Made by a program: the position numbers and the translations under genes. Of a DNA stretch of 64,000 bases, positions 60,907-64,000 are shown in pieces. Below the pieces are notes generated by a model. The model was not told the DNA's origin. It worked only from the letters and a program-made list of their open reading frames with translations, and searched no databases. Positions within the stretch are counted from its first letter, which is position 1. Each line of letters starts with the position of its first letter. Location of the stretch: the NCBI GenBank assembly GCA_016866775.1, contig VGLJ01000018.1, forward strand, positions 1-64,000, written 5' to 3'. This stretch comes from Candidatus Rokuibacteriota bacterium. GTDB lineage: Bacteria; Methylomirabilota; Methylomirabilia; Rokubacteriales; CSP1-6.

Positions 60907-61122
60907 TTACTTCTTCTGCGCGGCGGCGACCTCGGCCGCCTGGAAGCCGACCTTGTTGTGGGTCCCGTCGCAGTAGGGCTTCGTGACGGAGCTGCCGCAG
61001 CGGCAGAGCGCGGTGCGCGGCTTGTCGCTCGTGTCGATCCTGTTCCCGTCGACGTCGATCAGCTCGACCTCGCCTTCCACCACGTACGGCCCATTCGGAC
61101 GGATCGTGATCTTCACTGCCAT
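60907..61122 (-). CDS. CDGSH-type [2Fe-2S] protein
   Basis: 71 residues. C-x-C-x2-(S/T)-x3-P-x-C-D-G-x-H appears as CRCGSSVTKPYCDGTH, binding one [2Fe-2S] cluster through three Cys and one His; the N-terminal half is MAVKITIRPNGPYVVEGEVEL. Electron transfer or cluster transfer role. ATG 61122 has GGAGGAG upstream. Divergent from the radical SAM selenoprotein gene. Confidence 0.95.
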   Translation of the reverse strand: MAVKITIRPNGPYVVEGEVELIDVDGNRIDTSDKPRTALCRCGSSVTKPYCDGTHNKVGFQAAEVAAAQKK

Positions 61123-61180
61123 GGGGGTCTCCTCCGGACGGTGAGAGTGGCCAGCGCCCTCACGATACACTGAGACTCCC

Positions 61181-62572
61181 ATGCGCGGGCCCGGCGAGAT
61201 TCTACTGATCGCGTGCTACGAGCTCGGCCACCAGCCGCTGGCGGTGGCGTGGCCCGCGGCCGCGCTCGAGCGCGCGGGCTACGCGCCGGCGACGCTCGAC
61301 GTGTCCGTGGAGCCGTTCGATCCGGAGCGCGCGCGGGGGGCGCGGCTCGTCACGATCTCCGTGCCGATGCACACCGCGCTCAGGCTCGGCGTGAAAGTCG
61401 CCGCGCGCGTGCGCGCCGCGAATCCCACGTGTCACATCGCGTTCTACGGGCTCTACGCGACGTTGAACGCGGAGTACCTGCTCGCGCACGGCGCCGATTC
61501 GGTCACGAGTGGCGAGATCGAAGCGCCGCTGGTGGAGCTCGCGCGGCGGCTCGAGCGCGGCGAGACCGTCGAGCGCGCGCGGGCGCCACACCTCGCGCGT
61601 CCGGACGTGCCCGTGCCGAGCCGCGCGGCGCTGCCGAAGCTCACGCGCTACGCGAAGCTCGAGCGCGACGGCCAGCTGACGCTCGCGGGCTACGTCGAGG
61701 CGAGCCGCGGGTGCAAGCATCTCTGCCGGCACTGCCCGATCCCGCCCGTCTACGGCGGGCGCTTCTTCGTGATCCCGGCCGACGTCGTGCAGGCGGACAT
61801 CCGCCAGCTCGTCGCCGCGGGCGCCGGACACATCACGTTCGGCGATCCGGATTTTCTCAACGGCCCGCGCCACGCGCTCGCGGTCGCGCGCGCGCTCCAC
61901 GCGGAGTTCCCGCGGCTCACGTTCGGCGTCACGGCGAAGGTCGAGCACCTGCTCGCGCGGCGCGCCGACCTGCCGGAGCTCGGGGCACTCGGCTGCCTGT
62001 TCATCGTCTCGGCGGTGGAGTCGCTGAGCGACACCGTGCTCGGGCATCTCGACAAGGGCCACACCGCGGGCGACGTGCGTGAAGCGCTCGCGGTCGTCCG
62101 CGCGGCAGGGATCGCGCTCCGCCCGACGTGGGTGGCGTTCACGCCGTGGACGACGCTCGACGACTACCGCGCGATGCTCGAGTTCATCGACACGGAAGGC
62201 CTCGTGTCTCACGTCGATCCGGTGCAGCTCTCCGTCCGTCTGCTCGTGCCGCCGGGCTCCCTGCTCCTCGACACGCCCGCGCTGCGCCCGCATCTCGGCC
62301 CGCTGATGGCGGACGCGTTCCACTACCACTGGCGGCATCCGGATCCGCGCATGGATCAGCTCCACGCCGACGTCTCGGCCCTCGTCGCCGAGGCGGCGGA
62401 AAAGAAGGAGGACGCGGCGGTGACGTTCCGTCGCATCCGCGGTCTGGCGGGTCTGGGCGACGGCGCTGAGACGGTGGCCGCGCGCGCCGCCCCGAGACTC
62501 ACCGAGCCGTGGTTCTGCTGAAGCGAGCCCACGGAGGGCCAGGTGGCCCTCGCCGAGCGCGCGCTGCCGTAG
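61181..62572 (+). CDS. B12-binding-type radical SAM selenoprotein with CUSEP tail (Sec447)
   Basis: The frame reaches TGA 62519-62521 after Cys446 and continues to TAG 62570, giving 463 residues with Sec447: ...EPWFC-U-S-E-P-TEGQVALAERALP. From memory, an NCBI family is named for a CUAEP/CCAEP tail on radical SAM (seleno)proteins; C-U-S-E-P fits. The N-terminus resembles a cobalamin-binding domain (residues 1-115, no obvious DxHxxG), the radical SAM cluster is C178-x3-C182-x2-C185 (SRGCKHLCRHC), and a TIM-barrel core follows. The product is unknown; known relatives transfer or rearrange carbon groups. A SECIS hairpin follows the UGA. Divergent from the CDGSH gene. Confidence 0.85.
62534..62551 (+). 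promoter_or_regulatory. bacterial SECIS hairpin for radical SAM selenoprotein
   Basis: GAGGGCC (+13 to +19 after UGA) pairs with GGCCCTC (+24 to +30) around an AGGT loop (+20 to +23). Stem length, loop and distance are identical to those of the AhpD-like selenoprotein SECIS at 2387-2404, though the stems differ in sequence. Confidence 0.88.
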
Positions 62573-62690: not shown

Positions 62691-62981
62691 ATGACCACCG
62701 AGACGCCGGACCTCCGCTCCAAGGTACAGGAGCTGATCGACACGATGATCAACCCCGCGGTCGCCGGGCACGGCGGCTTCGTGGAGCTGGTCGACATCCA
62801 GGACAACCGCGTCTATCTGACGATGGGCGGCGGCTGCCAGGGCTGCGGGGCCGCGGATGTCACGCTCAAGGCGGGCATCGAGCGCCTGATCAAGGAAGAG
62901 ATCCCGGAAGTCGTCGAAGTGCTCGACGCCACCGATCACTCGCAGGGCACCAACCCGTACTACTCGGCCGGCAAAGCGTAA
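62691..62981 (+). CDS. NifU C-terminal domain protein (Fe-S scaffold/Nfu-like)
   Basis: 96 residues. LIDTMINPAVAGHGGFVELVDI and the C-x-x-C motif in GGGCQGCGAADVTLKAGIERLI are diagnostic. Holds and delivers an Fe-S cluster. Downstream of the radical SAM gene on the same strand; a GGGGGAGGTG site precedes ATG 62691. It ends in TAA, which overlaps the proposed ACG start of the ATP-grasp gene. Confidence 0.93.
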   Translation: MTTETPDLRSKVQELIDTMINPAVAGHGGFVELVDIQDNRVYLTMGGGCQGCGAADVTLKAGIERLIKEEIPEVVEVLDATDHSQGTNPYYSAGKA

Positions 62982-64000
62982 CGAGACTTCTTCTCCTCCT
63001 TCCGACCTCGACGTACCGCACGGAAGACTTCGTCGACGCCGCCACCACGCTGGGCGTCGATCTCGTCTGCGCGTCCGAGAAGCCGAGCACCTTCGAGCGC
63101 TCGGTCCCCGATCACCTCCTGACGCTCGATTTCTCCGATCCCGGCGCCGCGGCGGAGACGGCCGCGACGTTCGCCGCGCGGCGGCCGCTCGACGCGGTCG
63201 TGGGCGTGGACGATCTCACCGCGGTCACCGCCGCGGCGATCGCCGAGCGGCTCGGCCTGCGCGCGAACGTCGTGGCGGCCGTCAGTGCCGCGCGCGACAA
63301 GTTCCAGATGCGCCAGTGTCTGCGTGCTGCCGGCGTGCGCGTGCCGCGCTTCCGCCGGATCGCGCTGAAGGACGATCCGTTCCTGGCCGCGCGCGGTGTC
63401 GCGTTTCCCTGCGTCCTGAAGCCGCTGGCGCTCTCCGCCAGCCGCGGCGTCATCCGCGCCGACACCATCGACCAGTTCATGGCCGCCTTCCGCCGCATCT
63501 CGGCGCTCCTCGCGCGCGACGACGTCGCCGTCACCGGCGATGCCGCGCAGTTCTTGCTCGCCGAGGAATACATCCCGGGCATCGAAGTCGCGCTGGAGGG
63601 CTTGCTCGTGGACGGCGCGCTCCAGACGCTCGCGCTCTTCGACAAGCCCGACCCGCTCGTCGGGCCCTTCTTCGAGGAGACGCTCTACGTCACGCCGTCA
63701 CGCCTCCCGGCGGAGGTGCAGCAAGCGATCGTCCGCACGACCGCCGACGCGTGCGCCGCGCTCGGTCTGCGTGAAGGGCCGGTGCACGCCGAGCTCCGCG
63801 TGAACGAGGCGGGGCCGTGGATCCTCGAGGTCGCCGCGCGCTCGATCGGCGGCCTCTGCTCGCGCACGCTGCGCTTCGGAACGGGCATGACGCTCGAGGA
63901 AGTGATCCTGCGTCAGGCGCTGGGGCTGCCGATCGCGTCGCTGGAGCGCGAGGGCCAAGCCGCGGGCGTGATGATGTTGCCGATCCCGCGTGCCGGCACG
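62981..64000 (+). CDS. ATP-grasp domain protein, truncated by window end; probable ACG start
   Basis: 340 codons visible. The N-terminal RLLLLLPTSTYRTEDFVDAATTLGVDLV is a pre-ATP-grasp Rossmann start; then ARDKFQMRQCLRAAGVRVPRF, FPCVLKPLALSASRGVIRA, and the EVAARSIGGLC metal site of biotin carboxylase-like ATP-grasp ligases. The ligation partner is unknown. No ATG/GTG/TTG precedes this conserved start; ACG 62981, overlapping the NifU TAA (TAACG), is the only reasonable one. Continues past 64000. Confidence 0.85.

What the first reader, a model, noticed from the sequence alone, without database searches (positions are those of the whole stretch)
61181..62572. Second selenoprotein: radical SAM protein with C-U-S-E-P tail
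Seen: after Cys446 a TGA is followed by 16 sense codons in frame and a TAG; the junction reads C-U-S-E-P. From memory, a CUAEP/CCAEP-tail radical SAM (seleno)protein family exists, so this is likely an S-variant. The tail would be dropped by standard gene calling. The function of this tail-modified family is, as far as I know, undefined; nearby Fe-S genes (CDGSH, NifU-like) fit a redox enzyme.
Basis: partly seen in the sequence, partly recalled or inferred. Interest (0 to 1): 0.85.

Follow-up and report, generated by a model that had tools for sequence, protein, structure and literature searches.

The report
Selenocysteine-tailed radical SAM enzyme, CUAEP family
This gene encodes a real selenium-containing enzyme of a known but uncharacterised family (CUAEP/CCAEP-tail radical SAM), whose closest characterised relative, ArsL, makes an arsenic-containing antibiotic; so its selenium-bearing tail probably grips a soft element such as arsenic while the enzyme builds an unusual amino acid.

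Summary
ORF 61181-62521 reads C446-TGA, then 16 sense codons to TAG at 62570. The full protein matches NCBIfam NF040546 (rSAM_CUAEP; 664 bits, cut-off 500), so the family is known and was correctly recalled.

Evidence that TGA encodes selenocysteine:
- 73 of 80 homologues from several phyla have TGA there and 7 have TGC/TGT; the following residues [AS]-E-P are conserved.
- A hairpin after the TGA keeps 5.85 of 6 pairs by paired changes (synonymous null 4.14).
- The genome has SelA, SelB, SelD and tRNA-Sec.
- SelB is present in 13 of 14 Sec-form genomes and 1 of 7 Cys-form genomes.

Function is inferred. The closest relative is ArsL (arsinothricin synthesis; 35-36% identity), which ends in CC-LKC where this family has C-U/C-C. 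An ATP-grasp ligase follows the gene in several phyla and co-occurs with it (60/6/5/24 genomes). ArsL-type clusters also carry an ATP-grasp; used as a query, it finds only this neighbour in the genome. I propose ArsL-like 3-amino-3-carboxypropyl transfer to a soft acceptor held by Cys-Sec, then ligation. Against arsenic specifically: no ars genes were found nearby. New member of a known kind, function open.

The parts
61181..62572 (+). CUAEP-family radical SAM selenoprotein, 463 aa with Sec447
   Evidence: translation; NF040546 663.9 bits vs cut-off 500, residues 7-456; Pfam Radical_SAM 41 bits
61712..61735 (+). C178-x3-C182-x2-C185 motif for the SAM-binding [4Fe-4S] cluster
   Evidence: Sequence; the three Cys are invariant in 34 homologues of several phyla; CX3CX2C as described for ArsL (PMC8552651)
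62516..62521 (+). Cys446-Sec447 (TGC TGA), vicinal pair; aligns with the CC of ArsL's C-terminal RCCLKC
   Evidence: 73 TGA / 7 TGY / 0 other in 80 sequences; alignment with four ArsL/RCCLKC proteins
62522..62572 (+). C-terminal tail SEPTEGQVALAERALP and TAG stop
   Evidence: E449, P450 and Q454 invariant in 34 homologues; variation almost only at third codon positions
62534..62551 (+). bSECIS-like hairpin, 7 bp, loop AGGU, starting 12 nt after the TGA
   Evidence: Fold; covarying stem in 73 loci vs synonymous-codon null and Cys loci. Fold energy alone is unremarkable (z -1.2)
62691..62981 (+). Nfu/NifU-like Fe-S carrier, likely supplies the cluster
   Evidence: Matches NfuA C-terminal domain, 92.5 bits; homologous ORF just downstream of the rSAM in 41 of 81 loci
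62981..64000 (+). ATP-grasp ligase (L-amino-acid-ligase type), runs past the window end to about C18:64207
   Evidence: PF13535 106 bits and ATPgrasp_N; LAL_C2 in homologue L057; downstream of the rSAM in 46 of 81 loci; start codon not certain (no ATG/GTG at the conserved start)
60907..61182 (-). CDGSH Fe-S protein gene, divergent neighbour
   Evidence: PF09360 71 bits; in 25 loci; true start probably about 61123

Best explanation
Shown by sequence evidence: 61181-62572 encodes a 463-aa selenoprotein of the CUAEP/CCAEP-tail radical SAM family, with UGA447 read as selenocysteine through a hairpin just downstream (probability about 0.97). Inferred: it works like ArsL, its nearest characterised relative. 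[quoted passage not shown] The flexible C-terminal tail brings the Cys446-Sec447 pair to the active site, where it holds a soft, thiophilic acceptor (arsenite or another metalloid or soft metal) that receives the ACP group, giving an amino acid with a carbon-metalloid bond. The ATP-grasp ligase encoded downstream joins that amino acid to another molecule, and the Nfu protein supplies Fe-S clusters. The confidence given is for the ArsL-like ACP-transfer mechanism; arsenic as the acceptor is less likely still, about 0.3.
For: Selenoprotein. Sec/Cys at 447 tracks SelB: over cut-off in 13 of 14 Sec-form genomes and 1 of 7 Cys-form genomes. ArsL relation: NF040542 is second best at 317 bits and the next family scores 51; 35-36% identity over about 400 aa, E about 1e-76, with RCCLKC-tail/ArsL proteins. 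In a full-length alignment ArsL's terminal CC falls on C446-U447. ArsL transfers ACP to As(III) (PMC8552651; Yao et al. 2024 as cited in PMC12159101). Partner: an ATP-grasp gene follows in 46 of 81 loci of several phyla and co-occurs in the phylum (60 both, 6 and 5 single, 24 neither; Fisher p 2e-12, and 4e-7 without family f10). ArsL-type clusters of Priestia, Alicyclobacillus and Klebsiella also hold an ATP-grasp. The Priestia one used as query finds exactly one match at E<=1e-3 in this genome: the gene next to the CUAEP gene.
Against: This protein is below the ArsL cut-off (317 vs 450 bits), and the third Cys of RCCLKC is absent (E-P instead of K-C). No homologue of ArsR, ArsM, ArsB, ArsC, ArsI, ArsN1, ArsQ or aquaporin from ArsL clusters lies in the 81 loci, which argues against arsenic as the routine substrate. 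The ATP-grasp is not obligate: no orthologue was found in planctomycete genomes of L098, L100 and L107, and similarity to the ArsL-cluster ATP-grasps is only 23-28%. The tail was modelled with low confidence (block 441-450 about 65 pLDDT), so its approach to the active site is not shown.
Confidence: 0.45

Rival explanations
1. Canonical radical SAM enzyme (5'-deoxyadenosyl radical) in which the Cys-Sec pair is a redox pair, a selenenylsulfide giving electrons or hydrogen to the substrate or product radical.
For: Vicinal Cys-Sec is a classic redox pair (established knowledge); Cys/Sec interchange at 447; CDGSH and Nfu neighbours; the closest solved fold is AprD4, a diol dehydratase, which also appears.
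Against: By sequence ArsL is far closer than AprD4 (317 vs 22.5 bits), and ArsL's tail has the same CC at the same place.
Confidence: 0.25
2. Cobalamin-dependent radical SAM methyltransferase or alkyltransferase using the N-terminal B12-binding-like domain.
For: B12-binding Pfam hit 31.5 bits (cut-off 32.1); fold matches to TsrM, OxsB, TokK, MgmA.
Against: Just below the Pfam cut-off; no D-x-H-x-x-G motif in the N-terminal 150 residues (read directly); AprD4, the best fold match, is a diol dehydratase rather than a methylase.
Confidence: 0.1
3. The tail is itself a substrate: the enzyme modifies its own Sec or the E-P tail, or hands the modified tail to a partner.
For: Extreme conservation of W-F-C-U-A-E-P at a flexible C-terminus.
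Against: Residues after Q454 vary in length and sequence; the ArsL tail is shorter and ends at the Cys.
Confidence: 0.08
4. TGA is a plain stop and the downstream frame is chance.
For: Only 16 codons remain; the fold energy of the hairpin alone is not unusual.
Against: TGA/TGY-only column, coding constraint after the TGA, covarying hairpin, SelA/B/D and tRNA-Sec present, Sec/Cys tracks SelB.
Confidence: 0.02

Closest known systems
NCBIfam NF040546, CUAEP/CCAEP-tail radical SAM (seleno)protein (e.g. Thermomicrobium roseum WP_012643191.1)
   Same: Full-length match well over cut-off, same tail and Sec position; the T. roseum homologue also has the TGA before AEP.
   Different: Ser in place of Ala after Sec; no function has been assigned to the family in the sources searched.
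ArsL, arsinothricin biosynthesis radical SAM protein / RCCLKC-tail radical SAM (NF040542)
   Same: Same architecture, 35-36% identity, vicinal CC in the C-terminal tail, ATP-grasp neighbour in several clusters.
   Different: Below ArsL cut-off; lacks the third tail Cys; has about 40 extra residues before the tail; no ars genes nearby.
AprD4 radical SAM diol dehydratase (PDB 6fd2)
   Same: Closest solved fold, TM about 0.68.
   Different: Very weak sequence similarity (22.5 bits); different tail.
Other radical SAM selenoproteins: TIGR04167 rSAM_SeCys and TrsS NF045646
   Same: Radical SAM proteins with Sec (listed in PMC13188914).
   Different: Different families; neither appears among the hits of this protein.

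Membership tests
NF040546 rSAM_CUAEP | Whole-protein HMM score over curated cut-off (500 bits) | tested here: met
   663.9 bits
NF040546 rSAM_CUAEP | C-terminal C-[UC]-A-E-P tail | tested here: met
   C-U-S-E-P; A to S at one position, shared with L065
NF040546 rSAM_CUAEP | CX3CX2C radical SAM motif | tested here: met
   C178/C182/C185, invariant in 34 homologues
Bacterial selenoprotein | In-frame TGA aligned with Cys in homologues, both sides conserved | tested here: met
   73 TGA / 7 TGY / 0 other
Bacterial selenoprotein | bSECIS hairpin directly downstream with G in the first two loop positions | tested here: met
   7-bp stem, loop AGGU/AGUU, covarying
Bacterial selenoprotein | selA, selB, selC, selD in the genome | tested here: met
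   SelB 380.8 bits, tRNA-Sec 70 bits, SelD 335.5 bits with its own in-frame TGA, SelA 592.3 bits
Bacterial selenoprotein | Sec present in the expressed protein | not testable with these tools
   Needs 75Se labelling or mass spectrometry
ArsL (NF040542) | HMM score over cut-off (450 bits) | tested here: not met
   317 bits
ArsL (NF040542) | C-terminal R-C-C-L-K-C | tested here: not met
   C-U-S-E-P; only the vicinal pair is shared
ArsL (NF040542) | Linkage to arsQ/arsM/arsenic genes | tested here: not met
   None among 81 loci by tblastn at 1e-8 with queries from ArsL clusters
ArsL-like mechanism | ACP radical transfer to an acceptor | not testable with these tools
   Needs enzymology
B12-dependent radical SAM | Cobalamin-binding domain with D-x-H-x-x-G | tested here: inconclusive
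   Domain hit 31.5 bits, just below 32.1; motif absent in the sequence, but from general knowledge some B12 radical SAM enzymes lack it

The most novel reading that the evidence does not exclude
CUAEP enzymes are radical SAM selenoenzymes that build a carbon-metalloid (As, Sb, Se or Hg) bond, using a tail Cys-Sec pair to hold the element. With the ATP-grasp ligase they make a still unknown organometalloid amino acid or peptide that is common in soil and groundwater phyla (Methylomirabilota, Gemmatimonadota, Planctomycetota, Nitrospirota, Acidobacteria, Poribacteria).
Probability: 0.25. Interest if true: 0.82.

Novelty: new member of a known kind. Interest (0 to 1): 0.48.

Why it matters
The family is widespread (541 relatives in one scan; 63 of 95 genomes of the phylum) and usually mis-called because its tail follows a TGA. 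The position-for-position match of its Cys-Sec/Cys-Cys tail with the Cys pair of ArsL, plus a shared ATP-grasp partner, turns 'function undefined' into a testable idea: a selenoenzyme for carbon-metalloid bond formation.

Tried and rejected
Viral contigs: no relatives. Papers: 'CUAEP' and 'RCCLKC' occur in no paper of the library; Haft and Tolstoy 2025 (PMC12013261) is not held, so whether it describes CUAEP was not checked. The double-Sec protein next to planctomycete CUAEP genes was considered as a universal partner or substrate and rejected: absent from 95 Methylomirabilota genomes and found in 1 of 199 genomes of the planctomycete group sampled, the one it came from. DUF169 was considered as a partner: it recurs in Nitrospirota and Planctomycetota but in only 17 of 81 loci. 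Hairpin fold energy alone was not significant; covariation against a synonymous null was used instead, allowing two registers because the loop is 4 or 5 nt. PDB sequence search gave only weak hits. The whole genome was not available as a file.

Full report
What is there. The ORF from ATG 61181 runs to Cys446, then TGA (62519-62521), 16 sense codons and TAG (62570-62572); the read-through protein is 463 aa and ends ...RLTEPWFC-U-SEPTEGQVALAERALP. A normal caller ends it at 446 aa. It matches NF040546, 'CUAEP/CCAEP-tail radical SAM (seleno)protein', with 663.9 bits against a cut-off of 500.

TGA is selenocysteine. In 95 genomes of the same phylum, 63 have a match above the cut-off; every match reaching the tail has exactly one in-frame TGA, and the one match without it is a fragment that stops at profile position 215. 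A scan of GTDB contigs gave 541 relatives, of which 80 were kept. They come from Candidatus Rokubacteria/Methylomirabilota, Gemmatimonadetes, Planctomycetota, Poribacteria, Acidobacteria, Nitrospirae and a Tectomicrobia bin. With the window added and one truncated locus (L119) left out, the codon at position 447 is TGA in 73 and TGC/TGT in 7, nothing else. W-F-C before it and E-P after it are invariant, and codon positions 1, 2, 3 after the TGA differ from the majority in 1.6, 2.2 and 26.9%. Ser448 is shared only with L065.

The downstream hairpin is under selection as RNA. Its stem varies as GAGGGCC/GGCCC, GAGAGCC/GGCTC and GAGGGTC/GACCC in different phyla, with the amino acids changing along (G-Q-L-A-L, S-Q-L-G-S, G-Q-L-D-P). 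With a loop of 4 or 5 nt allowed, Sec loci keep 5.85 of 6 pairs on average, synonymous redraws 4.14 (maximum 4.44 of 300), and the seven Cys loci 3.57. The loop is AGUU or AGGU, G in the second position, with 12 nt of linker after the UGA, as expected for a bacterial SECIS (established knowledge). Fold energy alone would not have shown it.

The machinery is present. The genome has SelB and tRNA-Sec about 2 kb apart on contig C43, SelA between them (ORF, identified) and SelD with its own in-frame TGA. Across 21 genomes reached through loci, SelB is over its cut-off in 13 of 14 with the Sec form and in 1 of 7 with the Cys form; the exceptions are L092's genome (Sec form, no SelB found in a draft) and L126's genome (Cys form with SelB). 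Within the own phylum SelB is near-universal (83 of 95), so there it says little about CUAEP specifically.

Nearest relatives. After its own family the next NCBIfam model is NF040542, ArsL, at 317 bits (cut-off 450, so not a member), and the one after that scores 51 bits. Against plasmids, the hits are a CUAEP protein in Thermomicrobium roseum and RCCLKC-tail/ArsL proteins at 32-37% identity. Aligned over full length, ArsL ends ...KR-CC-LKC and the CUAEP family has ...WF-C-[UC]-AEP at the same columns. ArsL moves the 3-amino-3-carboxypropyl group of SAM to As(III) to make the precursor of arsinothricin (PMC8552651; PMC12159101). From memory, not checked here, the RCCLKC motif has been implicated in arsenite binding.

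Structure. AlphaFold2 with 34 homologues gives mean pLDDT 90.3, pTM 0.90; the tail block 441-450 is about 65. The fold is a B12-binding-like domain plus a radical SAM barrel, closest to AprD4 and cobalamin radical SAM enzymes. The usual D-x-H-x-x-G motif is absent from the sequence. The tail's position could not be measured.

Neighbours. Downstream in the window lie an Nfu-like gene (62691-62981) and an ATP-grasp ligase (from about 62981 past the window end). Clustering ORFs around 81 loci, the ATP-grasp recurs in 46 on the same strand downstream, including Nitrospirota and Acidobacteria, plus one on the opposite strand; the Nfu-like ORF in 41; CDGSH upstream in 25; DUF169 in 17 (Nitrospirota and Planctomycetota chiefly). 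In the phylum, rSAM and ATP-grasp occur together in 60 genomes, singly in 6 and 5, and neither in 24 (Fisher p 2e-12; 4e-7 after leaving out family f10, which almost wholly lacks both). Relatedness is not otherwise corrected for.

The ATP-grasp links back to ArsL. Priestia, Alicyclobacillus and Klebsiella RCCLKC clusters include an ATP-grasp gene beside arsM, aquaporin and arsinothricin-resistance genes in varying combinations; the Pseudomonas amygdali arsQLM cluster does not. The Priestia ATP-grasp searched against this genome finds one match only, the gene next to CUAEP (E 2e-14, 25% identity). This suggests that both enzymes feed an amino-acid product to a ligase. Arsenic genes themselves were not found near CUAEP genes, so the acceptor may be something else.

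Mechanism. Shown by sequence: selenoprotein, family, hairpin, machinery, partner association. Inferred: non-canonical SAM cleavage, acceptor bound by Cys446-Sec447, ACP transfer, ligation. A canonical redox role of the Cys-Sec pair is the main rival and is not excluded.

Novelty. The family is already named by NCBI; this is a new member. I found no paper describing it in the library, but a key paper on new selenoprotein neighbourhoods was not held. The proposed Cys-Sec counterpart of the ArsL tail and the shared ATP-grasp are, as far as I could check, not described.

Noticed in passing
Best NCBIfam hits are arsenosugar-associated peroxidase-like and ArsM/AhpD selenoprotein models, both below cut-off.
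   Followed up: partly
L098:12161-12763, L107, L114, L096, L095, L100, L112: Planctomycete CUAEP loci carry a secreted protein of about 200 aa with two consecutive in-frame TGA codons, GAEM[HKS]-U-U-[AG]G, with conservation on both sides; no Pfam or NCBIfam family found.
   Followed up: partly
L098:15296-16290, L107, L112, L114: Same planctomycete loci: MerT-like protein with an HMA domain carrying several TGA (ASSUCWLP, GMTUHTU) and a separate HMA protein (ILUGDUPNKV), plus an Orn/DAP decarboxylase-like and an FGE-sulfatase protein; a multi-selenoprotein, metal-related cluster.
   Followed up: partly
L108, L117, L131, L106, L098, L114 downstream of rSAM: DUF169 gene recurs directly after CUAEP genes in Nitrospirota and Planctomycetota (17 of 81 loci).
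   Followed up: partly
L054, L057, L062, L067 and others, 3' end of the rSAM gene: Many Rokubacteria share a DNA string near TTCGGGTACAGT at the end of the tail (residues SGTV), conserved more than the distal tail protein needs; could be a promoter or operator for the downstream gene.
   Followed up: no
G000:C31:24695-25639: selD of this genome has an in-frame TGA itself, i.e. a Sec-containing selenophosphate synthetase.
   Followed up: no
L118:2660-3586: In the Manganitrophaceae (Nitrospirota) locus the ATP-grasp gene lies on the opposite strand about 1 kb downstream of the rSAM gene, so the association outlives the operon order.
   Followed up: no
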